Source: Pseudocolwellia sp. AS88 | GTDB lineage: Bacteria > Pseudomonadota > Gammaproteobacteria > Enterobacterales > Alteromonadaceae | Length of the DNA: 64,000 bases | Direction: 5' to 3' | Assembly: GCF_030551755.1 (NCBI RefSeq) | Contig: NZ_JAUPEC010000001.1 | Location: 186,001 to 250,000 of the forward strand | Shown: piece after piece, positions 11,697 through 50,789 of the stretch | Layout: every line of letters starts with the position of its first letter | How positions within the stretch are numbered: position 1 is the stretch's first letter | Made by a program: the position numbers and the translations under genes | The notes under the pieces: generated by a model | Told to the model about the DNA's origin: nothing | The model's database searches: none | The model's input: only the letters and a program-made list of their open reading frames with translations

Positions 11697-14339
11697 ATGA
11701 ATTACGATTACCGCAAGCCTTTGCTTGGCTATAAAGTAAATGGCGTTAATATAGACTTCTTTGATACGCGTCAAGCGGTTGAAGAAATCACTCCAGGTAG
11801 CTATGCAAAATTACCTTATACCTCTCGCGTATTAGCTGAGCAGCTTGTACGTAAGTGTGATCCGGCAATGCTGAGCGACTCTTTAAAACAACTTATCGAG
11901 AGTAAACAAGAACTCGATTTTCCTTGGTATCCTGCTCGTGTAGTGTGTCATGATATTTTAGGACAAACTGCCTTAGTTGATTTAGCTGGCTTGCGTGATG
12001 CTATTGCTGAACAAGGTGGCGACCCTGCAAAAGTGAACCCTGTTGTACCTACACAATTAATTGTTGATCACTCGTTAGCTGTTGAGCATGGTGGTGATGA
12101 TTCTGAAGCCTTTGATAAAAACCGGGCTATAGAAGATCGTCGTAATAAAGACCGTTTCAAATTTATTGAGTGGAGCAAGACCGCCTTTAAAAATGTTGAT
12201 GTAATTCCTGCCGGTAACGGCATTATGCATCAAATCAATTTAGAAAAAATGTCTCCAGTTATTCAGTTACGCGATGGTGTTGCTTTTCCTGATACCTGTG
12301 TCGGCACAGACAGTCATACCCCTCACGTAGATGCTTTAGGTGTTATTGCTATAGGTGTTGGTGGTCTTGAAGCTGAAACTGTTATGTTAGGTCGTCCATC
12401 TATGATGCGTTTACCTAATATTGTTGGTGTAAAGTTAACAGGTAGAAGACAAGAGGGTATTACCGCTACTGATATCGTGTTAGCGATCACTGAGTTTTTA
12501 CGTAATGCCAAAGTAGTTTCTGCTTATTTAGAGTTTTTTGGTGAAGGTACGAAAGATTTAACCATAGGTGATAGAGCAACCATTTCAAACATGACACCAG
12601 AATATGGTGCTTCTGCTGGTATGTTTTATATCGACCAGCAAACCATTGATTACTTAAATCTTACAGGGCGTGAAACTGAGCAGGTTGCGTTAGTTGAAAC
12701 CTACGCTAAACACACAGGTTTATGGGCTGATGATTTAGTTGATGCTGAATATAAACGTGTACTTGAGTTTGACTTATCTAGTGTTTGTAGAAACATGGCT
12801 GGACCTTCAAATCCGCATCGTCGTTTAGCTACATCTACACTTACTTCTAGTGGGATAGCTAAAGAGCTTTCAGCTTGTAATGAACAAGAAAGCCAAGGTC
12901 AAATGCCAGATGGTGCTGTAATTATTGCGGCTATCACGAGTTGTACAAATACTTCTAATCCTCGCAATGTTGTCGCTGCTGGTCTAGTCGCTAAAAAAGC
13001 CAACGAGTTAGGCTTAATTCGTAAACCTTGGGTTAAGTCGTCATTTGCTCCAGGCTCTAAGGTGGCTAAACTTTACTTGGAAGAATCTGGTTTATTACCT
13101 GAAATGGAAAAACTAGGTTTTGGTATTGTCGGCTATGCTTGTACTACCTGTAATGGTATGTCGGGCGCACTTGATCCTGAAATACAAAAAGAAGTGATTG
13201 AACGTGACTTATATTCAACAGCTGTATTATCAGGTAATCGCAACTTTGACGGACGTATTCATCCTCACGCTAAGCAAGCTTTCTTAGCATCGCCACCATT
13301 AGTTGTGGCTTATGCTATTGCAGGAACTATACGTTTTGATATTGAAAGAGATATTTTAGGAACAGATAGCAAAGGTAATCAAATCACTCTAAAAGATATT
13401 TGGCCGTCAGATAAAGAAATAGATGACATAGTAAATACTTTTGTTAAACCTGAGCAGTTTAGAAAAATATACACACCTATGTTTGATTTAGGTGCATTCG
13501 AACCTGCTGAAAGTCCATTATATGATTGGGATCTTAAGAGTACTTATATCCGCCGTCCTCCCTACTGGAAAAAAGAGGGGGAAGGTGCTTTGGCGGGTAA
13601 ACGTACCATGAAAGGCATGCGACCATTAGCTGTACTGGGTGACAATATCACAACAGATCATTTATCACCGTCTAATGCTATTCAACTCAATAGTGCATCA
13701 GGAGCCTATCTAAAAAAGATGGGGTTACCGGTAGAAGATTTTAACTCGTACGCAACACATCGTGGTGATCATGAAACGACACAACGCGCCACGTTTGCTA
13801 ACCCTAAGTTGTTTAATGAAATGTGTCGTGATGATAAAGGTCAAGTAAAACAAGGCTCATTAGCTCGTATTGAACCTGAAGGTACTGAGTCTCGTATGTG
13901 GGAAGCTATTGAAACCTACATGGAGCGTAAACAGCCATTAATTATTATTGCTGGCGCTGATTACGGTCAAGGTTCATCACGCGATTGGGCTGCGAAAGGT
14001 GTTCGATTAGCGGGTGTTGAAGTAATCGTAGCACAAGGTTTTGAACGCATTCATCGTACTAATTTAGTTGGTATGGGCGTTTTACCGTTAGAGTTTATAA
14101 ATGGTGAAACACGACAAACCTACAATATTGACGGTAGCGAAACATACGACGTAGTGGGATCGACTTCTCCAGGTGCATTGATGACTGTTGTAATGACACG
14201 TCAAAAAGGCGAGAACAGTGGTGAGGTTATTGAAATACCCGTGAAGTGCCGTTTAGATACAGCGGAAGAAGTTTCTGTATACGACGGTGGTGGGGTATTG
14301 CAAAAGTTTGCTACTGATTTCTTAAAGTCTAACGGCTGA
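11697..14339 (+). CDS. acnD: 2-methylcitrate dehydratase, Fe/S-dependent (AcnD)
   Basis: Aconitase-family enzyme that dehydrates 2-methylcitrate; works with PrpF in place of PrpD. The 4Fe-4S cysteines are in ITSCTNTSNPRN and YACTTCNGMSG, the substrate loop in CVGTDSHTPH, and the C-terminal swivel domain has GADYGQGSSRDWAAKG. The 880 residues match AcnD. It follows prpC after a structured 184-bp spacer. No prpD is present, consistent with the AcnD/PrpF route known from Shewanella. Confidence 0.94.
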   Translation: MNYDYRKPLLGYKVNGVNIDFFDTRQAVEEITPGSYAKLPYTSRVLAEQLVRKCDPAMLSDSLKQLIESKQELDFPWYPARVVCHDILGQTALVDLAGLRDAIAEQGGDPAKVNPVVPTQLIVDHSLAVEHGGDDSEAFDKNRAIEDRRNKDRFKFIEWSKTAFKNVDVIPAGNGIMHQINLEKMSPVIQLRDGVAFPDTCVGTDSHTPHVDALGVIAIGVGGLEAETVMLGRPSMMRLPNIVGVKLTGRRQEGITATDIVLAITEFLRNAKVVSAYLEFFGEGTKDLTIGDRATISNMTPEYGASAGMFYIDQQTIDYLNLTGRETEQVALVETYAKHTGLWADDLVDAEYKRVLEFDLSSVCRNMAGPSNPHRRLATSTLTSSGIAKELSACNEQESQGQMPDGAVIIAAITSCTNTSNPRNVVAAGLVAKKANELGLIRKPWVKSSFAPGSKVAKLYLEESGLLPEMEKLGFGIVGYACTTCNGMSGALDPEIQKEVIERDLYSTAVLSGNRNFDGRIHPHAKQAFLASPPLVVAYAIAGTIRFDIERDILGTDSKGNQITLKDIWPSDKEIDDIVNTFVKPEQFRKIYTPMFDLGAFEPAESPLYDWDLKSTYIRRPPYWKKEGEGALAGKRTMKGMRPLAVLGDNITTDHLSPSNAIQLNSASGAYLKKMGLPVEDFNSYATHRGDHETTQRATFANPKLFNEMCRDDKGQVKQGSLARIEPEGTESRMWEAIETYMERKQPLIIIAGADYGQGSSRDWAAKGVRLAGVEVIVAQGFERIHRTNLVGMGVLPLEFINGETRQTYNIDGSETYDVVGSTSPGALMTVVMTRQKGENSGEVIEIPVKCRLDTAEEVSVYDGGGVLQKFATDFLKSNG

Positions 14340-14431
14340 GAGGTTAATTAAGCTTTGTTCGTTGTTGGAAGTGCTCATTGACGTTCGTCAACTCCGTGCT
14401 TCCACCTAAAACAAAACTTAATGTAACTCTC
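14338..14431. repeat. nested palindrome between acnD and prpF
   Basis: A hierarchical inverted repeat beginning at the acnD stop: outer arms GAGAG / CTCTC, then TTAAGCTTTGTT (14348-14359) against AACAAAACTTAA (14410-14421), GGAAG / CTTCC, and innermost TTGACG / CGTCAA around a short loop. It resembles a REP-type or mRNA-stabilising structure. No other copy was seen in this window. Confidence 0.5.
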
Positions 14432-14646
14432 TTATACGCCAAACTTGATTTTATTTATATTAAAGCAGCAAATGGGTAAAACTAATTGCTGTTTTTTAGT
14501 TTAATAATGATTAATTAACTCTTAGAAAACCGCGAATAAAAAATGTGTATTCACAAGGCGAGTAAAGGAGCATAGATTTCTATGTGATGTTATTCAACGA
14601 TGTTAAAGCGCATTTTAGCAAGCGGAAAATAAGTATGGAGATAAAC

Positions 14647-15828
14647 ATGTCCAATGTTCCTCAAGTGAAAATTCCTGCTGTGTATATGCGTGGCGGTACG
14701 TCCAAAGGTGTCTTTTTCAATTTAACCGATTTGCCTGAATCTTCTCAGGTACCTGGATCTGCTCGTGATAATTTATTATTGCGTGTTATTGGAAGCCCAG
14801 ATCCTTATGGTAAACAAACCGATGGTATGGGGGGAGCAACATCAAGTACGAGTAAAACCGTGATTTTAGCGAAAAGTGATGTTGAAAATCACGATGTAGA
14901 TTATTTGTTTGGTCAAGTGGCCATCGATAAAGCCTTTGTTGATTGGAGTGGTAACTGCGGAAACTTAACGGCAGCGGTTGGTTCATTTGCTATTTATTCC
15001 GGTTTAGTTGACCAAGATAGAATTCCAGAAAACGGTGTGTGCACTGTGCGCATTTGGCAAGCCAATATAAAGAAAACGATTATTGCTCAAGTACCAATCG
15101 TAAATGGTGAGGTGCAAGAAACGGGTGACTTCGAATTAGATGGTGTGACTTTCCCCGCAGCAGAAGTTCCTGTTGAATTTATTGAACCTGTTGACCCTTC
15201 AGAAGCTATGTTTCCAACTGGTAATGTTATTGATGAACTTGAAGTGCCTGATATTGGAACCTTTAAAGTGACTATGATAACTGCTGGCATTCCGACCATA
15301 TTTTTAAATGCTGAAGATATTGGCTTTACAGGTACAGAGCTTCAAGATGATATTAATAATGACGATGAAGCTTTAGCTAAGTTTGAAAAGATCAGAGCTT
15401 ATGGCGCATTAAAAATGGGGCTTATTAAAGAGCTTTCTGAAGCAGAAGCAAGACAACACACGCCTAAAGTCGCGTTTGTTGCACCCGCTAAAAGTTACCA
15501 AGCGTCAAGCGGTAAGCAAATCCAATCAAACGATATTGATTTAAATGTAAGAGCTCTTTCTATGGGTAAATTACATCATGCAATGATGGGAACTGCTGCT
15601 GTGGCTATAGGTTCCGCTTCCGCAATTCCTGGCACATTAGTTAATATTGCTGCTGGCGGAGGTGATTGTAAATCGATTACTTTTGGCCATCCATCGGGCA
15701 CATTAAAAGTAGGTGCTGAAGCTAGTTTAGTGGATGGGAAATGGGCAGTAAATAAAGCAATAATGAGCCGAAGCGCACGTATATTAATGGAAGGGAATGT
15801 GCGAGTTCCAGGCGATTCTTTTGTATAA
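14647..15828 (+). CDS. prpF: 2-methylaconitate cis-trans isomerase PrpF
   Basis: Isomerises the AcnD product (a 2-methylaconitate isomer) so that the cycle can proceed. The protein carries the family start IPAVYMRGGTSKGVFF and GNCGNLTAAVGSFAI with the catalytic cysteine region. The frame is open from 14584, but GGAG at 14637-14640 points to the ATG at 14647, giving 393 residues and the N-terminus MSNVPQVKIPA typical of the family. Last gene of the prp operon. Confidence 0.93.
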   Translation: MSNVPQVKIPAVYMRGGTSKGVFFNLTDLPESSQVPGSARDNLLLRVIGSPDPYGKQTDGMGGATSSTSKTVILAKSDVENHDVDYLFGQVAIDKAFVDWSGNCGNLTAAVGSFAIYSGLVDQDRIPENGVCTVRIWQANIKKTIIAQVPIVNGEVQETGDFELDGVTFPAAEVPVEFIEPVDPSEAMFPTGNVIDELEVPDIGTFKVTMITAGIPTIFLNAEDIGFTGTELQDDINNDDEALAKFEKIRAYGALKMGLIKELSEAEARQHTPKVAFVAPAKSYQASSGKQIQSNDIDLNVRALSMGKLHHAMMGTAAVAIGSASAIPGTLVNIAAGGGDCKSITFGHPSGTLKVGAEASLVDGKWAVNKAIMSRSARILMEGNVRVPGDSFV

Positions 15829-16028: not shown

Positions 16029-17648
16029 ATGAATCTATTTAAAACATTATCGGTATCAGCAAAGATTTATTTAATTCCAATAATAGGAACTATTTCATTT
16101 GTTATTTACTTAACGCTATCTACATTTAATGCCAATGATAATGTGGATATCCTTTCAGACGCTAAAAATGTTCAGTTTCCCGTAGTTCAATACTCTAAGG
16201 AAGTGTCAGTAGATATTGTCAAAATTTCGGAGCTTCTTAATGCTGCAGTTACAACAGGAGATGAAGATAATATTAATAATGCAGATGAGGTCGCGACAGT
16301 AATTAAAGTACTGATAGAGAAAATTGGCTCTACAGATGAACGTTTTATCAATACACAAAAAAAAATGCTTAGTGAGTTTAATGATTACTACGCTCAAGCA
16401 AAATCTCTTTCTGTAGGCATGCTTAATGAAACCGTTGATTATGAACAATTACCTGCATTAGGCAAAAACATGAATCAATCATTTGAACTCATTTTAGCTA
16501 CAGTTAATGGCTTCAATTCTGAACAAGTACAAAAGTTTGAAGAAACCATTTTAGAAGCAAATCAGTCAGCTCAATCAATGGTTACTATTGGTTTTATTAT
16601 GGGGATTACTACCATAGTTTTACTCTTCGGTACGGCAATTCCTATAGCCTCTGGTATTAAATCATCTATTAGTGAAGTTGTAACTTCCTTAAAAGATATA
16701 GCAGAGGGAGAGGGCGACTTAACGGTAAGATTAGTTGCTAAAACTGAAGATGAAGTTGGACAACTTGTTCACAGTTTTAATTTATTTATGGATAAATTAC
16801 AAACAACCATCAAGCAGGTTGTTGATATAGCCTTACCATTATCAGAAATGGCTATATCCGTAAGTACTACCGCACTAGAAACCAATAAAATCACATTAGA
16901 GCAACAACAAGGAGCTTTACAAACAAAAGATGCTGTTGAAAACATGAATTTGAGTGTTCAAACGGTTGCCCACAGCGCTTCTTTAGCTTCATCTGCATCA
17001 ACTGAAGCCTCAAGTATTTCTAAAGAAGGGGCCATTGTCGTAGAGCAAACAGTACAAACTATACATTCTTTAGCTAAAACAGTAGAAAACTCATCTGCGG
17101 TAATCGATAAGTTAGATGCAGATAGTAAGCAAGTTGGTGCAGTTTTAGACGTTATTAAAGGGATTGCAGACCAAACTAATTTATTAGCTTTAAATGCGGC
17201 AATTGAAGCAGCACGTGCTGGTGAACAAGGACGTGGCTTTGCGGTAGTTGCAGATGAAGTAAGAACACTAGCTTCAAGAACTCAAGATTCAACAACTGAA
17301 ATTCAGAAAACCATTGAGCAACTTCAAATTGCAGCACGTTCTGCAGTAGAAGCAATGAGTAATGGAAGAAGTTTAGCTGAAAAAGGTGTTTCAGAAGTTA
17401 GTTTAGCAGGTGAATCTCTTGCTGCTATTACTTCTTCTGTTGAGCAGATTAATGCAATGACAACCGATATAGCGACAGCAACGAATGATCAGTCGACTGT
17501 AGCAACCGAAATTGTATCGCATGTTGATAATATAAGTATGACAACAAAAGTGACACACCAATCATCAGAAGAGCTAGCAGAGGTAAGTAGTAACTTAGCT
17601 GATTTAGCCAATAATCTCCAAATACTGACTAAAGGATTTAAAGTTTAA
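16029..17648 (+). CDS. methyl-accepting chemotaxis protein
   Basis: Transmembrane chemoreceptor, 539 residues. TM1 spans about residues 11-30 and TM2 about 185-206, with a periplasmic helical ligand domain of some 155 residues between them. A HAMP domain follows ([21 protein letters not shown]). The signalling tip carries [22 protein letters not shown] and [12 protein letters not shown] for CheA/CheW contact. Only 20 bp separates it from the porin gene and 12 bp the porin from the small PBP-like gene, so all three are likely co-transcribed. This suggests that the receptor senses a solute handled by those two proteins. The ligand is unknown. Confidence 0.92.
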
Positions 17649-17668
17649 CTAACTTAACGAGGTATAAC

Positions 17669-18868
17669 ATGAAACCAATGAAAAAATGTAAAGTTGCACT
17701 ACTTATAGCAGGCGTCTGTTGCTCCATGTCATCCATGGCTGAAGTCAAATTTAATGGCTTTGCATCAATTAAAGCAGGCGTTTTATTTGACGATCCAACA
17801 GATCTGAATAGCAATGGTTTCATCGATGATGAAGAAATGATTTTAGGGGGATTTTACGACAAAGATTTGTCTTTTAAACCTGAAAGTGTTTTTGCATTAC
17901 AAGTTTATTCTGATTTAGGTGAAGGTCTTTCTTTTACTGCACAATTATTTGCAGAAGGTAGAAGTGATTTTGATGTTGAAGCACGTTGGGTTTACCTATC
18001 ATACGAACTTACTGATGAATGGAAAGTAAACGTTGGTCGTATGGTATTACCTATGTTTTACAAATCAGAGTCTGAAAAAATTGGTTATACAGTAACGGGT
18101 AACAGATTACCTCGCTCTGTATATGATGATTTCGATTTTGCTGTTGTTGAAGGTGTTAGACTTAATAATTCAACGGAAGTTGGAGACTGGACGATTAACT
18201 CTTCATTTGGTTACTATTCTTGGGAAGGTGATTTTGGTACAAGTAATGGCGACTTTAACACATCTTTCGACAACATAATTAGTGTGAGTGCAGAGTTTAA
18301 CTATGATTGGTTAACATTATTTGCTGGTGGCTTTATTGCAGAAATTGACTTTAGTGAGCTTAATGAAGCTGTTATTTATCCAGGTATTGATGGCGGTGCT
18401 GCTGCGTTTGGTTTATCTGCAACAGAAACACAATCGTTAAAAGACACGGTTCAATTAAGTGGCGATGGACAGTACTATTATATTGGCGCATCAATTGATT
18501 ATAATGACTGGTTAATGACTGCTGAGTACGCTGACTATGGTATTAAAGACACTGGTGATACCTTTAACGAAGTTTATTATGTAATGGCAGGTAAACGATT
18601 TAATGAGTATACAGTGCTATATACCTATGAAGAATATGATGAGCCAGAAGATCTTTCTTCGTTAAATGGTTTTTCAGTACCAGCTCAGGCTATAGGTACG
18701 GCTATTATCAACAATTTACTTACTAATAAGTTTACTACTCAAACAGTAAGTTTACGTTACGACTTCCATTCAAATGCAGCATTTAAAGTTGATGTATTTA
18801 ATTCAAAACCAAATGGAAGTAATGAAAGTGTTTCTGGTATGTCGTTTGGTGTAGATTTAGTATTTTAA
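17669..18868 (+). CDS. outer-membrane porin (first copy)
   Basis: Predicted beta-barrel porin of 399 residues with a signal peptide (about 1-24, ending SSMA) and a C-terminal Phe (GVDLVF). Alternating amphipathic strands are visible throughout. It shares blocks with the second porin in this window at 44043-45253, for example NVGRMVLPMFY here and KLGRQRIPFFN there. Oddity: residues 45-56 (DLNSNGFIDDEE) form a full 12-position EF-hand calcium loop that the second porin lacks. AGG/GAGG precedes the ATG. The solute is unknown; the neighbouring PstS-like protein hints at phosphate or another anion. Confidence 0.8.
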   Translation: MKPMKKCKVALLIAGVCCSMSSMAEVKFNGFASIKAGVLFDDPTDLNSNGFIDDEEMILGGFYDKDLSFKPESVFALQVYSDLGEGLSFTAQLFAEGRSDFDVEARWVYLSYELTDEWKVNVGRMVLPMFYKSESEKIGYTVTGNRLPRSVYDDFDFAVVEGVRLNNSTEVGDWTINSSFGYYSWEGDFGTSNGDFNTSFDNIISVSAEFNYDWLTLFAGGFIAEIDFSELNEAVIYPGIDGGAAAFGLSATETQSLKDTVQLSGDGQYYYIGASIDYNDWLMTAEYADYGIKDTGDTFNEVYYVMAGKRFNEYTVLYTYEEYDEPEDLSSLNGFSVPAQAIGTAIINNLLTNKFTTQTVSLRYDFHSNAAFKVDVFNSKPNGSNESVSGMSFGVDLVF

Positions 18869-18880
18869 GAGGAGAAAAAA

Positions 18881-19288
18881 ATGAGAAAACTTATAACATT
18901 AACCGCTTCTCTATTATTTTGTAGTTCTGTATTTGCAGGTGGAGTTGTTATCGTTCACCCATCAAATACAGCAAGTCTAGATAATAAGGCGATTTCAAAA
19001 ATATTTTTAGGTAAAAGTAAAAAATTCTCAGATGGAAGTGAAGCTAAACCTTTAAATCTAGAATCAGGGGATACGAGTGCTGAATTTACTAAAGAGATTT
19101 TAGGTAAATCAGAAAGTCAATTGAAAGCCTATTGGTCTAAATTGCTCTTTACTGGTAAAGGGCAAGCGCCAGAGTCTTTAGCCAGTGATGCTGATATTAT
19201 CGACATGGTAAGCAAAAATCCTAATATGATCGGATATGTTAGCGATTCAGCTAATGTAGATAGCGTAAAAGTTGTATCTAACTTTTAA
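18881..19288 (+). CDS. small phosphate-binding-like periplasmic protein (first copy)
   Basis: A 135-residue secreted protein (signal peptide about 1-19, SSVFA) related to the PstS-like periplasmic binding fold but only half the usual length. The core shared with the second copy at 43624-44043 runs through FTKEILGKSESQLKAYW and LLFTGKGQAP, ending with an MIGYVSDS-like strand. The start has a strong GAGGAG signal 12 bp after the porin stop. With no ABC transporter nearby, it probably serves sensing rather than uptake (inference). Confidence 0.78.
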   Translation: MRKLITLTASLLFCSSVFAGGVVIVHPSNTASLDNKAISKIFLGKSKKFSDGSEAKPLNLESGDTSAEFTKEILGKSESQLKAYWSKLLFTGKGQAPESLASDADIIDMVSKNPNMIGYVSDSANVDSVKVVSNF

Positions 19289-19309: not shown

Positions 19310-19337
19310 AAAGCCGACATTTATGTCGGCTTTTTTT
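19310..19337 (+). terminator. terminator after the chemoreceptor-porin-PBP operon
   Basis: AAAGCCGACA, loop TTTA, TGTCGGCTTTTTTT: a strong 10-bp stem with a T-run. Confidence 0.88.
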
Positions 19338-41501: not shown

Positions 41502-43553
41502 ATGTTTTTTAAAACGATCAAAAATACTACGGCCTCTATAGCTACTATTGCAATTTGTATAGTTAGCTTGAGTATTCTTACTTTTTCTCTTCAAGAGCAC
41601 GAAAAATTATATTTTGAATCCGTTAAAGGAGATTTAGACGCACTATCTGAAAATATGTCTAGTGATTTAGTTCCTCTTTTAGCTTTTAAGCCTGATGAAT
41701 TTGAATTAACAACAATGCTTTTGCGTTTAGATCGATATGATAATGTTAAATTTGGCGTTATTTATGATAAAGATTTTCGACAACTACAAAGCTACCATGG
41801 TAACTCGTTTTCTAATTCTGATGTTGTTATCACTCCAGATCTTAAATTACTAGAAGAAGAACCTTTAGGTGTTTACGTTAAAAATGGTGATTTAGTTGCG
41901 CTAAAGCTTATTGGTGACAAACGTTTACCTTTAGGTTATTTGCTTATTGTTCATGACTCTAGTGGCCCGCTTAGTAAAAGTAAACATAACTTACTTAAAC
42001 AGGTATTACCATTAACTTTACTTTTGTTAGCTGTTGTTATTGCCGTTTTATTTTGGATTCAAGGTCGATTATTTTTACCTCTAAGTCGACTTTCGATTTT
42101 GGCACAAAAAATTCAAACTACACACGATTACTCCCTAAAAATTGATATTAGAGGTAAACAAGAAGTTGTCTCCTTAAGCCAAGATCTCAACCTAATGATG
42201 CAAACCATTAACCAAGAAACTCAAAAAAATAAAGAATATACTGAAAGGTTAATGGAACAGCAAAAAAAAATGGAACGATTAGCTAATTTTGATGGGCTAA
42301 CGGGATTACCAAATAGACAGTTTTTTATGGAAACACTACGTCTAGAATTAGCTAAAGCGAAGCGATCAAAAACAAATTTAGTATTAATGTATTTTGATTT
42401 AGATGGCTTTAAAGGGGTAAATGATTCACTTGGTCATGAAACAGGCGATCAATTACTTATTGATGTAAGTAAGAGAACCCAAAAATTTTTACGTGAAGGA
42501 GATCTTATTTCTCGTTTAGGAGGGGATGAATTTTTGGTACTTCTTCACAATGACCCTAATGATTTATTATTATCTGACATTGCAGAACGCATAGTAAAAG
42601 GGCTTTCTGAGCCTTTTGAAATTAATTCATGGCAAGTGCAGGTAAGTGTGAGTGTTGGTATTGCTAAGGCTTTTGATTCTAACTTTAACCTGAGTGAATT
42701 TGTGAGCAATGCGGATTTTGCTATGTACCGTTCCAAGCTTGCTGGTCGTAATACTCACACAGTGTTTATTCCAGAAATGATGGAAGACAATAAACGTAAA
42801 CTATTAATTGCCAACTCTATTTCTCATGCGATCAAAAATGATGAGTTTACTTTATTTTATCAACCTAAGGTTTCGCCTGAAGAAAAAATAGTAGGCTACG
42901 AGGCCTTACTAAGATGGACAAATGATACATTAGGGATGGTATCTCCAGCAGAGTTTATTCCTATTGCAGAGCAAAGCGGTAAAGTACAAATTATAACAAA
43001 GTGGGTATTAGAAAGATTATGTAAAGATTTTGCCAAAATTAAAGAAAGTATAGATCCAAATATTGTGATATCAGTTAACTTATCAGCCCAAGACATTAAA
43101 AGTAAGTCGCTCACTTCTTTTGTTAAAAGCTTGTTTACTCAATATGCTATTAATCCTCATTCTATTGAGTTTGAAGTAACAGAGTCTGCTTATTTGGAAA
43201 ACTTTGACATGGCAAATACCTTTTTCACTGAAATGAAAAAACTAGGTATATCAATTGCTCTTGATGACTTTGGTACAGGGTATTCGTCTTTAGGTTATCT
43301 TACGCAATTACACTTAAATACTCTTAAAATAGATAAACAGTTTGTCGATAACCTTTTAATCTCTGAGCGCAGTACATTAATCACTAAAACGATTATTGAA
43401 ATGGCGAAACAACTTAATTTGAAAATATGTGCTGAAGGTGTAGAAACAAGAGATCAGTTTGATTTTTTGGTAGAAAATGGCTGTCATCAATTACAAGGTT
43501 ACCTATTCTCTAAACCCATTTGTTTGGAAGACGTACTTAAATTTAAACTTTAA
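41502..43553 (+). CDS. membrane GGDEF-EAL protein (c-di-GMP turnover)
   Basis: A 683-residue signalling protein: TM1 about 11-30, a periplasmic sensor domain about 31-165, TM2 about 167-187, HAMP about 188-240, GGDEF about 260-420 and EAL about 435-683. GGDEF is intact (340-344) with an inhibitory I-site RxxD at 331-334, exactly five residues before it. The EAL domain retains EAL (467-469), FEVTES (557-562) and DDFGTG (588-593), so both activities are possible. It is convergent with the second small-PBP and porin genes, which may feed its periplasmic sensor (inference). Confidence 0.9.
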   Translation: MFFKTIKNTTASIATIAICIVSLSILTFSLQEHEKLYFESVKGDLDALSENMSSDLVPLLAFKPDEFELTTMLLRLDRYDNVKFGVIYDKDFRQLQSYHGNSFSNSDVVITPDLKLLEEEPLGVYVKNGDLVALKLIGDKRLPLGYLLIVHDSSGPLSKSKHNLLKQVLPLTLLLLAVVIAVLFWIQGRLFLPLSRLSILAQKIQTTHDYSLKIDIRGKQEVVSLSQDLNLMMQTINQETQKNKEYTERLMEQQKKMERLANFDGLTGLPNRQFFMETLRLELAKAKRSKTNLVLMYFDLDGFKGVNDSLGHETGDQLLIDVSKRTQKFLREGDLISRLGGDEFLVLLHNDPNDLLLSDIAERIVKGLSEPFEINSWQVQVSVSVGIAKAFDSNFNLSEFVSNADFAMYRSKLAGRNTHTVFIPEMMEDNKRKLLIANSISHAIKNDEFTLFYQPKVSPEEKIVGYEALLRWTNDTLGMVSPAEFIPIAEQSGKVQIITKWVLERLCKDFAKIKESIDPNIVISVNLSAQDIKSKSLTSFVKSLFTQYAINPHSIEFEVTESAYLENFDMANTFFTEMKKLGISIALDDFGTGYSSLGYLTQLHLNTLKIDKQFVDNLLISERSTLITKTIIEMAKQLNLKICAEGVETRDQFDFLVENGCHQLQGYLFSKPICLEDVLKFKL

Positions 43554-43623: not shown

Positions 43624-44043
43624 TTACTCTATTTCAAGTATTATTGTTAAATTGCTAGGAATCTCAGCAGTAGATGATAAATAAGCAATGGTCCCTTTAT
43701 TATTTTTAAGGTATTCAAGTGCCAAAATTTCACTATCAACTTCTTTAGGTGCTACCTTACGACCTGTAAAGCGCATTTGTGCCCAATACGACTGAATACG
43801 AGCCTCCGTTAAACCAACTACTTTAGTATTAAATAGCACACGTGTTTGATTTTCTGGAGGTAGAGAAATGGCTTTTAAATCGTAAGGTATTGCCCCTCCC
43901 ATAAATAAATTTCTTATTTGTTGACGATTAAGCTTAATTAAACTGTCGGTGGTATTTGCGACAACATAAATAGTGTTATTAGCATTAACGTTCGGTGCAA
44001 AACTAAGGGCAGATACTAAGAGTAAAGGAATATAATTTTTCAT
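43624..44043 (-). CDS. small phosphate-binding-like periplasmic protein (second copy)
   Basis: A 139-residue secreted protein (signal peptide about 1-21, PNVNA), a paralogue of the protein at 18881-19288. Both have a YW...FTG core (IQSYWAQMRFTGRKVAP here). The frame is open from a GTG at 44055, but the ATG at 44043 overlaps the TAA stop of the repaired porin frame (TAATG), the natural coupled start and the beginning of the signal peptide. It has half the length of a usual PstS. No ABC transporter is adjacent. Confidence 0.78.
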   Translation of the reverse strand: MKNYIPLLLVSALSFAPNVNANNTIYVVANTTDSLIKLNRQQIRNLFMGGAIPYDLKAISLPPENQTRVLFNTKVVGLTEARIQSYWAQMRFTGRKVAPKEVDSEILALEYLKNNKGTIAYLSSTAEIPSNLTIILEIE

Positions 44044-45253
44044 TAAAATACCCACTCCGCGCCAATTTGATACAGAAGGGCATGACCATCAAATCCACCT
44101 AAATCTTTTAAACCATAACGGTTACTAATTTTGTCGTCAGCTTCTACAAATGTTATTTCTGCTTTAAATGCTAAATTAGTTTTCAATCCCAACGGGTACC
44201 AATTTTAATACCTGTTGATTGGTCATCTGCGAAGGTGGTTGTTATAGCATCATATCCACCTGCTAACATATCTAAACCGGGAGATAAGCCATAAGGAATT
44301 TCGTTGATAGCGTGCTTATAATAAAGGTCTTTTTTACTGTAAGATATATATGCAGTATAAGGCGCAAAGTTATAACCAGCTGATACATAAAAACTATTTA
44401 TATCTGGTAGTAAACCACTACCACCAACTAATTTAGATACTTCACTACGGAAAAAATAATCTAAATTTTCGTAATTTACACTAAAATGATAAAATTGAAT
44501 TAGCCCGCTTGTGTTAAGCCAATTAGCATTGTTAATGAATCCAAATTGACGTAATTGTTGGCTAAACTCTTCTACCTCTGTTTGTTCAATACTTGCATCA
44601 CCTTTATTATAGGATGCACGAACAGTGAAGTTTTCATAACTAACACTAACGTTAACGCCATACAAACCGACTGCTTTAGTGTCTATTTCAGTATCTGATG
44701 TGTATATTGTTCCATCGAATCTACCCCAGTAGCCCTCATAGTTAATTAGCAAGTCGTTAATGCTAAACTCGTAGTTAGCCAATATGCCATCAAATGTTGC
44801 AAAAAACGCAGAGTCATAAAATTGCTGGGGTAATGTTAACCAGGGATAAGCAAAACCAACATCTAGGCTATCGCTATAGTTGAAAAATGGAATTCGCTGC
44901 CTTCCAAGTTTAACTTGTAATGCATTATTTGGCTGATAAGTAAGATATAGCCATTCTAAACCTGACTGTCTTTGTTCACCTGTATGCGCAATGCCTTGAG
45001 CGGTAAGAGAGAAGTCATCATTGAATTTATAATCAGCTTGAAGGGCAAATAGTGATTGTTTATTAATACTAATATTATTGCTGTAGCCTACATATTCTGC
45101 ATTTTCATCATCAAGGTAGCCAAGAATAACGCGAGCAAAACCAGAAAACTCAAGTTTATCTTCTTCAGCAAGAGCAATAGAGCTCGTGGCTAGTAAAGAG
45201 CTTAATAAAATGAGGGCAACACTAGATGTAACTTTTAATTTTTTAACGGTCAT
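44043..45253 (-). pseudogene. outer-membrane porin (second copy), frameshifted near the 3' end
   Basis: The intact part (45253 down to 44183) encodes 356 residues: signal peptide about 1-29 (SIALA) and beta strands paralogous to the porin at 17669. It stops after KIGTRWD. A second frame continues without a stop from there to 44043 and encodes about 50 residues with typical porin strands, ending GAEWVF. Joining the frames gives 406 residues, close to the 399 of the paralogue, whose C-terminus aligns (LAFKAEITF with AAFKVDVFN). The break is at GGTACCCGTT (44200-44191); a second tandem copy of this decamer would restore the frame and read RWYPLG. It may be a real contraction, a phase-variable state or an assembly error. 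Confidence 0.75.
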
Positions 45254-47723: not shown

Positions 47724-50003
47724 TTAGCTCAATGCTTTATCCAAAGTAATACTTAAGGTTACACCTGCAGGATTGTGATGATCATTAGCGCTAATACTTC
47801 CTTGATGAAACTCTACAATCAGCCTTGCGATATAAAGTCCTAAACCTAAATGCGGTTGGGCTTGTCGTTTAGTATCACGCATCGATACCATCGAATCAAA
47901 TAATCTATCTTTCATTAATTCAGGTAAGTGCTTGCCGTTGTTACTAATATGGATCACAAAAGTTGATTGGGTTTCTTGTAAACTAATACTCACTTTTTGG
48001 TCGTTACTAAACTCTACTGCGTTGGCAAATACCTTATCAAGCAACTGTGCAATATGTTCAGGCGATCCCTGTATGTTGGGGACTTGTTTACTATTTAGGT
48101 GATTGCTTTCGTTCACTAAACCATTCAATGAAAATTCTACATCTGTGTATATTTGTTTGTAACCTTGCACACAGCCCACCAGTACTTGTTGTAAGTTAAA
48201 GGGGACACGTTCAGTGGTGGCCAGCATTTGTTCTAAATTTGTTGCTTCACTCATATTTGTTAAGATCAAATTCAACGTATTAATACCTGTTTGTGCTCGC
48301 TCTAAATAAGGCACTGTACTTTCAGGTAGTTGCTGCATCGTTAGGTTTTCAAGCGATGTTCTAACTACTGCAATCGGTGTTCTAAGTTCATGTGACAAGC
48401 GTGACGACATACCTTCTAGATAATGGTTATATTGGCTAAGTCGATTAACTGCAGTTGAAAAGCTACGTGATAAATCACCAATTTCATCATTAGCGGTTGA
48501 TGCAATAAGTTGATTATTAATACGCCCATTTTCGTCAATACTTGATTCAGCCTGATTGCGTAATGTTCTTATGCGGTTAGATATGCGCGATGCAAATAAA
48601 AAGAAACATGTAGCACCCAGTAACATGATAGCGAGTATTGACGTAAAGAGTTTCTCAAGAGCTTGGTTTCTTAAAGTTCTGATGCCATTTGTAGTTTCTT
48701 CTACAATAACTGCACCGTGTACTTGGTTATTAATATAAATAGGGTAAGCGGCTGAAAGCACAACAGCTTGCTGATCTGTGGTTAAACGCCATTGTGAATG
48801 CGCATTACCTTGCAGCGCGCTCTTAATATGTTTACCTGTTAAATGCTGTGCGTCGTATAGTTCGTCGATAAAATCTTTAGGTGGCTTGGTGAGGAATTTA
48901 TAATAAAAAGGTAATAGCCAATTTTCTTCAATTGAGTGCCATACAGAGGTAATAATTGAATTGTTTGAGTCATTCGAGCCAGAGTTATTTGAAGCAGTTC
49001 TTTTATTCCATACACCGTTGGCTTGTTTTAAATTTCCTGCTTTTGCTAAAACCCGTTGATGTTGATCCACTACCCATACACTTGAGTTGGTGTAACTCAT
49101 GCCTTTTACAATACGCTCAATTTCAGGTGAGGGCACTAGCACAGTACCTAAGGTTTTTGCGCTGCTTGGATCGGCTGAACCAATAACACTAAGAGCATCG
49201 GTAAATTCTTTATCTACATCATGAAAAGCAAACGCGATATTGTCGCCAACCATCTCCATAGGAATACGTAATTCTACATTGTAACCTTGCGGTGTCTCTA
49301 ACCAATGCCCTTGTATTTTAGGGGCTACGGTGATAATTGTTTTAAAAGGTGGATTCTGTGCAGAGTAATCAAAACTCTTTATTTCAACACCAGCAGTTTC
49401 AATAATTTGTGTTTCAACTTTATAAGCATCTAACCAACCTGAATTTTTGTTACTTATAATGAAGCGATTAAAGTTGTTTTGTGGATCGCTTAAGCCGATT
49501 TCTAAATGATCATTTTTAAATATACCGCGCGCATTTTTGTGACGATATATTAATTTATTATCCACGACAGTAAACATCATATAGAGATATTTATCGTATT
49601 GACCAACAGTAGCATTGAAGTGCAATGAACTTTCTACAGATGACTTTGATAACTGATTTTTTTCACCGTAATAATGAGCGCGGGAGTTAAATAATGGCCA
49701 ATCAATTGGTAAGCCGTCTAATTGAATTGCTGTGGTTAACTTGTAGCTATAAAGATCTTTGCCTTTTTCAACATTAGGCAGAAAGCTTGCTTGGTTATTA
49801 AAAAGGTTAGGGCGTTCATGCAAAGCGGTTGCTAAAGCACGAGCTGTGCCGACGATGGTTTGCTCTTGTCCGTAACGTAGGTATTTTTCCATTTCCCATA
49901 CGTACTGATAACCAAACCAAGGTAGGCTGAATAAAAACGATGAGAGTAAAAGTAATTTAATACGTAACCCAAACCTAAAAAAAGACTTACTTTTATTAGG
50001 CAT
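47724..50003 (-). CDS. pdsS: Pds sortase-system histidine kinase
   Basis: Sensor kinase of the proteobacterial dedicated sortase (Pds) system, 759 residues. TM1 about 12-33, a large periplasmic part with a CBM9-like region about 88-290 (TTAIQLDGLPIDWP, VELRIPMEMVG), TM2 about 452-472, HAMP 473-525, H-box SHELRTP with phospho-acceptor His538, and a C-terminal ATPase (GLGLYIARLIVEFHQG). The octapeptide IRTLRNQA occurs at 441-448 and again at 478-485, on either side of TM2. It lies 39 bp after pdsR and is almost certainly co-transcribed with it. Confidence 0.88.
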   Translation of the reverse strand: MPNKSKSFFRFGLRIKLLLLSSFLFSLPWFGYQYVWEMEKYLRYGQEQTIVGTARALATALHERPNLFNNQASFLPNVEKGKDLYSYKLTTAIQLDGLPIDWPLFNSRAHYYGEKNQLSKSSVESSLHFNATVGQYDKYLYMMFTVVDNKLIYRHKNARGIFKNDHLEIGLSDPQNNFNRFIISNKNSGWLDAYKVETQIIETAGVEIKSFDYSAQNPPFKTIITVAPKIQGHWLETPQGYNVELRIPMEMVGDNIAFAFHDVDKEFTDALSVIGSADPSSAKTLGTVLVPSPEIERIVKGMSYTNSSVWVVDQHQRVLAKAGNLKQANGVWNKRTASNNSGSNDSNNSIITSVWHSIEENWLLPFYYKFLTKPPKDFIDELYDAQHLTGKHIKSALQGNAHSQWRLTTDQQAVVLSAAYPIYINNQVHGAVIVEETTNGIRTLRNQALEKLFTSILAIMLLGATCFFLFASRISNRIRTLRNQAESSIDENGRINNQLIASTANDEIGDLSRSFSTAVNRLSQYNHYLEGMSSRLSHELRTPIAVVRTSLENLTMQQLPESTVPYLERAQTGINTLNLILTNMSEATNLEQMLATTERVPFNLQQVLVGCVQGYKQIYTDVEFSLNGLVNESNHLNSKQVPNIQGSPEHIAQLLDKVFANAVEFSNDQKVSISLQETQSTFVIHISNNGKHLPELMKDRLFDSMVSMRDTKRQAQPHLGLGLYIARLIVEFHQGSISANDHHNPAGVTLSITLDKALS

Positions 50004-50042: not shown

Positions 50043-50789
50043 TTAAGCATTATGGATTGAACCTGCATTATTTGTTGTGTTGTTAGTATTAGTGGGTAAG
50101 TCTTCATTCCAGCGATAACCCATGCCGTAAACCGTTTCAATGTAATCAAAAGTGGCATCTATTCTTATAAATTTTTTACGAATACGTTTTATATGTGAAG
50201 TAATAGTGCTGTCATCAACAAATATATTAGAATCTTGCATTAATTGAGTTCTGTTTTTCACATGTCCTGGATGCTTAGCCAAAGCGTAAACCATCCAAAA
50301 TTCTGTAATGGTTAAATCAATTAGTTGATTTTTCCACATCACACTCATGCGTTGGCTGTCTATTGTCATTGAACCAACATTTATTAGATGATCTACTTGC
50401 TGAGGTTCTTTCATTGCATTTTGACGACGAAATAAAGCTGAAATTCTAGCGCTTAGGTGAGGTAAGCTAATATCTTTTGTTAAATAATCATCAGCACCAA
50501 TTCGTAATCCTGAAACCGTATCAAAGTCATTATCACGAGCCGTTAGAAAAATAATCGGTAAAGTCGTTGATAGGGTTCTTAACCACTGACATAAAATAAA
50601 GCCACCATCGTATTCCTCCTCTAAACCAATATCTAAAATAACCAAATGTGGCAAGCGTAAAGTAAATGCTTGTGTCGCACTGTCACGATCGGCATAAGTT
50701 TGTACTTGATACCCTTGGCTACGAAGCACATCAGCATAGTTTTCTCTTATGGCTGCTTCATCTTCAACTATCGCAATACGTTTACTCAT
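50043..50789 (-). CDS. pdsR: Pds sortase-system response regulator
   Basis: OmpR-type response regulator, 248 residues: receiver with phospho-acceptor Asp53 (LVILDIGLEEEYDGG) and the family stretch LPIIFLTARDND, then a winged helix (about 145-235; WMVYALAKHPGHVKNRTQL, SHIKRIRKKF, VYGMGYRW). The segment GADDYLTKDISLPHL is characteristic of PdsR. It is divergent from pdsO, which it probably controls across the 235-bp gap. Confidence 0.9.
   Translation of the reverse strand: MSKRIAIVEDEAAIRENYADVLRSQGYQVQTYADRDSATQAFTLRLPHLVILDIGLEEEYDGGFILCQWLRTLSTTLPIIFLTARDNDFDTVSGLRIGADDYLTKDISLPHLSARISALFRRQNAMKEPQQVDHLINVGSMTIDSQRMSVMWKNQLIDLTITEFWMVYALAKHPGHVKNRTQLMQDSNIFVDDSTITSHIKRIRKKFIRIDATFDYIETVYGMGYRWNEDLPTNTNNTTNNAGSIHNA

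What the first reader, a model, noticed from the sequence alone, without database searches (positions are those of the whole stretch)
16029..19288. Chemoreceptor-porin-mini-PBP operon, duplicated with a c-di-GMP protein at 41.5-45.3 kb
A porin and a PstS-like protein of only about 135 residues are paired twice in 64 kb, each next to a membrane signalling protein: an MCP here and a GGDEF-EAL protein at 41502. The small proteins share the YW...FTG core and the porins share the LGR...P block. There is no ABC permease or ATPase. A plausible reading is an outer-membrane channel plus a periplasmic solute-binding mini-PBP that reports to interchangeable signal outputs (chemotaxis or c-di-GMP). I know of no description of this pairing as a system.
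Basis: partly seen in the sequence, partly recalled or inferred. Interest (0 to 1): 0.8.

Follow-up and report, generated by a model that had tools for sequence, protein, structure and literature searches.

The report
Porin plus half-PstS sensing module
Many marine bacteria keep an outer-membrane pore next to a half-size relative of a phosphate-binding protein, and this pair often sits beside one of several switches (steering, biofilm signal or gene control); a version with a biofilm switch is already known from cholera bacteria, but I found no description of the wider family.

Summary
MCP 16029-17648, porin 17669-18868 and a 135-aa PstS-like protein 18881-19288 form a tight + strand cluster. 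A homologous porin/mini-PBP pair lies at 44183-45253/43624-44055 (-), but its GGDEF-EAL neighbour is convergent, not in the same operon.

The association is not chance: of 108 blocks in relatives, 101 hold a porin and 79 touch a chemoreceptor, GGDEF, GGDEF-EAL or kinase gene (29 touch none); control genes 15 of 345. It recurs in other classes of the phylum. The window's genome has four pairs, each beside a different transducer. The three sensor families tested lie mostly beside such pairs, and the receptor co-occurs with the pair even when unlinked.

The window proteins are homologous to the vpvAB products of a genome that I place in the V. cholerae group. What I did not find described is that this front-end also sits with chemoreceptors, hybrid kinases and other GGDEF-EAL proteins. 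The mini-PBP models as one PstS lobe without the phosphate loop; ligand and mechanism are open.

The parts
16029..17648 (+). Chemoreceptor (MCP), 539 aa: TM1 ~13-31, ~155-aa periplasmic domain, TM2 ~189-207, HAMP, MCPsignal
   Evidence: periplasmic part modelled as a four-helix bundle; this domain family accompanies the pair in other genomes
17669..18868 (+). VpvA-like porin A, 399 aa, signal-peptide-like start, C-terminal F
   Evidence: homologous to the VpvA-like porin of L338; no Pfam hit at E 0.1
18881..19288 (+). VpvB-like mini-PBP A, 135 aa with signal peptide, models as one PstS lobe
19310..19333 (+). Terminator-like hairpin with T tail behind the mini-PBP
   Evidence: consensus scan only; 4 such sites in the region against 2.1 expected
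41502..43553 (+). GGDEF-EAL protein, 683 aa, two TM segments around a ~137-aa periplasmic domain; convergent to the second pair
   Evidence: its sensor family lies beside a mini-PBP/porin pair at 6 of 8 places
43624..44055 (-). VpvB-like mini-PBP B, 143 aa
   Evidence: no Pfam hit at E 0.1
44183..45253 (-). VpvA-like porin B, 356 aa (Porin_4)

Best explanation
The porin and the mini-PBP form a VpvAB-type sensory front-end, not a transport system. The porin sits in the outer membrane; the secreted mini-PBP, one lobe of a PstS-type protein, works in the periplasm and relays the state of the porin, or of a ligand that passes it, to a dedicated two-TM transducer in the inner membrane. In the window one pair would feed a chemoreceptor with a four-helix-bundle domain (output: swimming) and the other a GGDEF-EAL protein (output: c-di-GMP). 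Elsewhere the pair sits with VpvC-type cyclases, a longer GGDEF-EAL class or hybrid histidine kinases. Shown here: gene association far above control, sensor families found mostly beside the pair, co-occurrence without linkage (MCP class), homology to VpvAB, single-lobe fold (model), no ABC ATPase next to the mini-PBP. Inferred: that the proteins touch, the direction of signalling, and that a small ligand exists.
For: Adjacency 80 of 213 flanking genes against 15 of 345 control genes in the same loci; repeated in 20 loci from outside the order, 14 of 40 against 2 of 66, and in named genomes, 45 of 157 against 9 of 315. Reverse test in 35 genomes each, places matched by hand: MCP-domain family 12 of 19 places beside a pair, long GGDEF-EAL sensor 13 of 14, window-type GGDEF-EAL sensor 6 of 8. 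MCP domain in 18 of the 19 genomes with an A-type mini-PBP (my cut of 1e-19, any cut from 1e-20 to 1e-8 gives the same 19) and in 0 of the other 16 (p 4e-9; relatedness not corrected). In the six genomes where every MCP match lies away from a pair, the A-type pair stands without a signalling neighbour. A profile of the MCP domain from 24 relatives matches 42 of 45 further adjacent MCPs (46 less one identical to a training row) and 0 of 2 non-adjacent ones. Named example: Vibrio sp. THAF190c, kinase > PBP > porin with gaps of 9 and 2 bases. [quoted passage not shown] Single-lobe fold at Z 13.8.
Against: 29 of 108 blocks in relatives and 39 of 81 in the named set have no signalling gene beside them, and in the named set 27 of 40 adjacent MCPs are on the opposite strand. 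PBP and MCP-domain distances show no correlation once porin and signalling-part distances are taken out (partial r 0.03, p 0.30), whereas PBP-porin keep 0.58 and porin-MCP domain 0.15 (p 0.001 each): no sign of direct PBP-receptor coevolution. In V. cholerae E7946 complete deletion of vpvABC changed neither c-di-GMP nor smooth-to-rugose switching (PMC8754643). A single lobe has no classical binding cleft, and no ligand is known. In the second window set the transducer is in another transcript. Reverse tests were not run for the kinase and VpvC-type sensors.
Confidence: 0.7

Rival explanations
1. Envelope-state sensor without a small ligand: the mini-PBP is held at the porin's periplasmic mouth and is released or reshaped when the porin is blocked, misassembled or bound by a polymer or phage; the transducer reads free mini-PBP, much as YfiB/YfiR control YfiN (recalled).
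For: Single lobe without cleft; PstS phosphate loop in 1 of 249 mini-PBP ORFs; strongest residual coevolution is PBP-porin; the window GGDEF-EAL aligns over residues 5-412 with the DgcN/YfiN model, though below its cut-off (185.6 of 325 bits).
Against: No YfiR or YfiB homologue was looked for. A porin with its own periplasmic partner fits a channel for a solute equally well. The XylFII-LytSN complex (PDB title) shows a binding protein in complex with a sensor's helical domain, but that is a full-size PBP (recalled).
Confidence: 0.2
2. Uptake pair: porin and mini-PBP bring in a nutrient for an inner-membrane importer encoded elsewhere; the neighbouring transducer senses the same nutrient directly and is only co-regulated.
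For: 29 of 108 blocks stand without a transducer next to them; among six neighbours of five such blocks looked at are a TonB receptor and peptidases; annotation as phosphate ABC transporter protein.
Against: No ABC ATPase next to a mini-PBP (permeases not searched); half a PBP; sensor families found mostly beside the pair; published effect of VpvAB on c-di-GMP (PMC12456836).
Confidence: 0.08
3. Chance or hitch-hiking neighbourhood: signalling genes are common in these genomes and the pairs happen to lie next to them.
For: These genomes are rich in MCP and GGDEF genes (recalled, not counted).
Against: Controls in five of six locus sets at p <= 1.5e-5 (0.009 in the set of six; two of the sets were picked by similarity to VpvB-type proteins); gaps of 3-30 bases in many; the same MCP-domain family in other classes.
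Confidence: 0.01

Closest known systems
VpvABC of Vibrio cholerae (PMC12456836: passages and section 14 read)
   Same: Homologous porin and small PBP encoded side by side, next to a two-TM signalling enzyme; the paper proposes that the porin imports a signal sensed by VpvB and VpvC, and that vpvAB without vpvC is a conserved sensing unit.
   Different: In the window the transducers are a chemoreceptor and a convergent GGDEF-EAL protein with other periplasmic domains.
CtpL-PstS chemotaxis of Pseudomonas aeruginosa (PMC4926252: abstract and outline read)
   Same: A PstS-type periplasmic protein stimulates a chemoreceptor.
   Different: PstS there binds phosphate and serves a transporter (abstract) and is full-size (recalled); here it is one lobe without the phosphate loop, with its own porin and no ABC ATPase beside it.
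XylFII-LytS (PDB titles 5xsj and 5xsd; biology recalled)
   Same: A PBP in complex with the helical periplasmic domain of a sensor kinase, similar in fold to the MCP domain model.
   Different: Full-size sugar-binding protein of another family (recalled); the fold match is weak (E 0.03).
NspS-MbaA and YfiBNR (NspS-MbaA from abstract starts; YfiBNR recalled)
   Same: Periplasmic (and, for YfiB, outer-membrane) partners control a membrane c-di-GMP enzyme.
   Different: No porin; unrelated periplasmic partners (recalled, not tested); no chemoreceptor or kinase version known to me.

Membership tests
VpvABC-type module | Porin homologous to VpvA | tested here: met
   VpvA-like of L338 against porin B 1.9e-19 and porin A 4.9e-10 (pairwise E); L338 porin against the family HMM 6.9e-83.
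VpvABC-type module | Small PBP homologous to VpvB, encoded beside the porin | tested here: met
   29.7% identity, 6e-18 (A); 26.7%, 1e-11 (B), pairwise E; adjacent and co-directional in both sets
VpvABC-type module | VpvC-type diguanylate cyclase as third member | tested here: not met
   Set A has an MCP; set B a convergent GGDEF-EAL protein of another sensor class. So the window holds VpvAB-type pairs with other transducers, not VpvABC.
VpvABC-type module | Pair changes the output of the transducer | not testable with these tools
   needs mutants; published for V. cholerae only
PstS of phosphate ABC transporters (PF12849, TIGR02136) | Fold of the PstS lobe | tested here: met
   Z 13.8, rmsd 1.9 over 105 residues with 1twy residues 102-218; profile matches 4exl residues 78-184, E 6e-8
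PstS of phosphate ABC transporters (PF12849, TIGR02136) | Two lobes closing on the ligand | tested here: not met
   135 aa with signal peptide, aligned to one lobe only
PstS of phosphate ABC transporters (PF12849, TIGR02136) | RxxxSGT phosphate loop | tested here: not met
   absent in both window proteins; present in 1 of 249 mini-PBP ORFs (243 distinct) but in the genome's full-size PstS; that this loop holds phosphate is recalled
PstS of phosphate ABC transporters (PF12849, TIGR02136) | Encoded with permease and ATPase | tested here: not met
   no ABC ATPase next to a mini-PBP in L064-L170; the one beside a block is UvrA. Motif scan for ATPases; permeases not searched.
PBP-mediated chemotaxis (CtpL-PstS kind) | PBP contacts the receptor's periplasmic domain | tested here: inconclusive
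   no residual coevolution PBP-domain in 58 trios (partial r 0.03); domain and signalling part are collinear (r 0.88), so power is low
YfiN/DgcN-type cyclase (window GGDEF-EAL) | Score over the curated NF007423 cut-off | tested here: not met
   185.6 bits against 325

The most novel reading that the evidence does not exclude
VpvAB is a general, plug-in outer-membrane sensing front-end of Pseudomonadota: a porin with a half-Venus-flytrap messenger whose missing half is supplied by its partner (porin mouth or sensor domain), recruited several times by unrelated chemoreceptors, diguanylate cyclases, GGDEF-EAL proteins and hybrid kinases, so that one cell (as in the window's genome) runs several parallel porin-to-transducer channels with different outputs.
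Probability: 0.4. Interest if true: 0.82.

Novelty: new variant of a known kind. Interest (0 to 1): 0.62.

Why it matters
If true, many proteins now labelled 'phosphate ABC transporter substrate-binding protein' and 'porin' in marine and soil bacteria are the input side of chemotaxis, c-di-GMP and phosphorelay signalling rather than transporters. It puts VpvABC, whose signal is unknown, into a wider family in which the same kind of input can be studied through a chemotaxis read-out, and it gives a test case for how a one-lobe PBP can signal.

Tried and rejected
Fusions of the mini-PBP to a sensor or to the porin: none found among the cases looked at. Open frames of 558 and 514 aa and of 255-355 aa were followed up in part: in the 558-aa case porin and PBP lie in one frame separated by a stop; the 514-aa case is an ordinary 135-aa PBP in L288; three long ORFs (L382, L383, L387) are upstream extensions with the PBP at the C-terminus. 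One of 286 aa (G489) and some of 190-225 aa were not looked at.

One shared periplasmic domain across outputs: not seen by hhalign; the only notable hit, window-type GGDEF-EAL against VpvC-type at 76%, lies around and behind TM2. Rows used: MCP 24 of 24, short GGDEF-EAL 8 of 9, long 17 of 22, GGDEF 10 of 13, kinase 7 of 7 (first 250 residues, which cuts the domain's end); the rest fell out through my start-motif rule.

PBP-receptor coevolution: not found; told as evidence against.

PDB by single sequence: 0 hits at E 1. Literature: searches returned 0 papers; one returned 3, judged by title and abstract start; 11 listed 20 of 207, none relevant except MbaA; one returned only PMC12456836. VpvC-type sensor in plasmids: one weak hit.

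My first gene caller lost the mini-PBP in 4 loci through overlap with porin ORFs; numbers are from the repaired run. One weak match (G036, E 6e-4) was not fetched. The kinase query missed one kinase-like neighbour (L137) that an earlier clustering had counted (7, 6).
Full report
WHAT IS THERE. The window holds a tight cluster MCP (16029-17648), porin (17669-18868), mini-PBP (18881-19288), all + strand with gaps of 20 and 12 bases and a terminator-like hairpin after it. Pfam sees HAMP and MCPsignal in the MCP, a sub-threshold PBP_like_2 in the mini-PBP and nothing in this porin. The second set has the same order porin > mini-PBP on the - strand (45253-43624) with the GGDEF-EAL gene (41502-43553, +) convergent, 70 bases away, so it is a neighbour, not an operon member. 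The pairs are homologous but old paralogues: PBPs 24% and porins 28% identical.

THE WINDOW'S GENOME. It has four mini-PBPs, each with a porin of the same family and each next to a different kind of transducer: MCP (20 bases upstream, same strand), GGDEF-EAL of the short sensor class (convergent, 70 bases), hybrid histidine kinase (divergent, 298 bases; domains), GGDEF-EAL of a long sensor class (3 bases downstream, same strand). A full-size PstS lies elsewhere.

SURVEY. From 59 genomes searched (38 with matches to mini-PBP A, 36 to B) I fetched 107 mini-PBP loci. They hold 112 mini-PBPs in 108 blocks; 101 blocks contain a porin; 79 touch a signalling gene: GGDEF-EAL 35, MCP 24, GGDEF 13, kinase 6, both GGDEF kinds 1; 29 touch none. 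Flanking genes are signalling genes in 80 of 213 cases, genes three or more away from the pair in the same loci in 15 of 345 (Fisher p 4e-24). HMM iteration from porin A or porin B converges on the same 110 proteins, and 223 of 235 porin ORFs over 300 aa end in F.

WIDER SETS. Order level: 107 of 295 genomes have a match to the VpvB-type profile at E <= 1e-15. Phylum level: 26 of 199 match the general profile at E <= 1e-10; 20 of these matches, in 14 genomes outside the order, were fetched: of 20 blocks 19 have a porin and 13 a signalling neighbour (MCP 4, GGDEF 3, kinase 3, GGDEF-EAL 2, GGDEF and kinase 1), 7 none; control 2 of 66. Two of the 80 loci (L172, L176) repeat loci of the first set. 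They are Colwellia, Pseudoalteromonas, Alteromonas, Rheinheimera, Hahella and others. Named records: Vibrio sp. THAF190c has kinase (1106 aa) > PBP > porin (the similar kinase of L168 has HisKA, HATPase and two receiver matches); the Caballeronia sp. SBC2 plasmid has porin, PBP, EAL-domain protein, diguanylate cyclase in a row.

SENSORS. The typical member of each transducer class has two TM segments around a periplasmic domain (MCP about 155 aa, short GGDEF-EAL about 137, long GGDEF-EAL about 255, VpvC-type about 120, kinase about 265; simple hydropathy scan with a few exceptions). Between classes hhalign finds no shared periplasmic domain. Within the MCP class the domain is one family: a profile from 24 relatives matches 42 of 45 other adjacent MCPs, including all 4 from the phylum sample, and 0 of 2 non-adjacent MCPs. 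Searched the other way in 35 genomes each, and matched by hand with the places, the MCP domain is found at 19 places, 12 beside a pair; the long GGDEF-EAL sensor at 14 places, 13 beside one; the short one at 8, 6 beside one. In those 35 genomes the MCP domain occurs in 18 of the 19 that carry an A-type mini-PBP and in none of the other 16 (p 4e-9). In the six genomes where every MCP match lies away from a pair (G004, G006, G013, G017, G018, G019) the A-type pair is among the 29 blocks without a signalling neighbour, which is what one expects if the two still work together. One further unlinked MCP is in G039, which also has a linked one. These genomes are related, so the p-value overstates independence. 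Kinase and VpvC-type sensors were not tested in this direction.

OUTPUT AND PBP LINEAGE. On a tree of 159 mini-PBPs the label (five outputs and none) needs 29 changes against a shuffled mean of 97; the five outputs alone need 10: outputs are kept along lineages and changed several times. The tree is poorly resolved (72 of 155 inner branches open).

KNOWN RELATIVE. V. cholerae VpvABC is described as porin, PBP and membrane diguanylate cyclase, a predicted three-component module in which the porin likely imports an unknown signal; vpvAB without vpvC is reported widely and called a possible conserved sensing unit (PMC12456836, passages and section 14). Another paper calls VpvA and VpvB hypothetical and saw no effect of a complete vpvABC deletion on c-di-GMP or switching in E7946 (PMC8754643, passages). 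In 118 genomes of a genus that I take for Vibrio, 37 had a VpvB relative at E <= 1e-10; of 20 loci fetched, 18 read porin > PBP > GGDEF, one has an MCP, and in one the cyclase is split into two ORFs. L338 has an acpS-like gene (read by eye), porin, PBP, GGDEF (430 aa), then a convergent kinase; its cyclase has W240 and 17 of 19 VpvC positions listed in PMC12051071 (passages; that W240 is the rugose-mutation site is recalled). Its PBP and porin are homologous to both window pairs. That the gene next to vpvC is varS/barA is recalled, in part supported by the VC_2453 tag in PMC12051071.

FOLD. AlphaFold2 models mini-PBP A at pLDDT 90.8. It matches residues 102-218 of the V. cholerae PstS-type structure 1twy at Z 13.8, rmsd 1.9 over 105 residues, that is one lobe. 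The loop RxxxSGT, which holds phosphate in PstS (recalled), is present in 1 of 249 mini-PBP ORFs (243 distinct) and in the genome's own full-size PstS. The first 215 residues of the MCP model as a four-helix bundle (pLDDT 88.4); nearest solved folds by Foldseek are the Vc1313 ligand domain (E 3e-3) and the LytS sensor of the XylFII-LytSN complex (E 0.03); helical bundles match easily, so this is weak.

MECHANISM. Shown: association, sensor families mostly beside the pair, homology to VpvAB, one-lobe model. Inferred: the porin admits or senses a cue, the mini-PBP relays it, the transducer answers by swimming, c-di-GMP or phosphorelay. Against simple ligand delivery: one lobe, no phosphate loop, and in 58 MCP trios (blocks with one PBP, one porin over 300 aa and an MCP of 500-600 aa) PBP distances keep a correlation with porin distances (partial r 0.58) but not with receptor-domain distances (0.03, p 0.30); porin and receptor domain keep 0.15. 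This leaves room for a porin-bound mini-PBP that reports the state of the porin.

NOVELTY. I found no description of chemoreceptor or kinase versions. The vpv search (30 of 317 listed, most about other things) shows two papers on vpvABC that name VpvB; neither main text has a hit for 'methyl-accepting', 'chemoreceptor', 'histidine kinase' or 'sensor kinase'. Searches found none either. I rate it a new variant of a known kind.

Noticed in passing
window 11697-15828: An aconitase-like gene (by eye) and prpF (PF04303, 551 bits) lie directly upstream of the MCP cluster; a prpF-like neighbour of the same cluster recurs in one congener (L072), while the L068 locus has a porin ORF upstream of its MCP. 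A link of the signal to propionate metabolism is possible but not supported by wider context.
   Followed up: partly
window 47724-50003 and 50043-50789 (-): A 759-aa protein that reads as a membrane histidine kinase (by eye) beside a 248-aa ORF that may be its response regulator; not examined.
   Followed up: no
L068, L078, L085, L169: Tandem porin-PBP-porin-PBP arrays beside one transducer or none, as if the front-end duplicates on its own.
   Followed up: no
L305: One Vibrio-type genome has an MCP > porin > PBP cluster directly convergent with a kinase > PBP > porin cluster.
   Followed up: no
NZ_CP013139.1 and other records: Public annotation calls many of the mini-PBPs 'phosphate ABC transporter substrate-binding protein', although they are half-size and nearly all lack the phosphate loop.
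   Followed up: partly
G428 (L379-L383): A 2.4 Mb genome of the same class with five mini-PBPs, four with a porin and none with a signalling gene next to them; its transducers may lie elsewhere.
   Followed up: no
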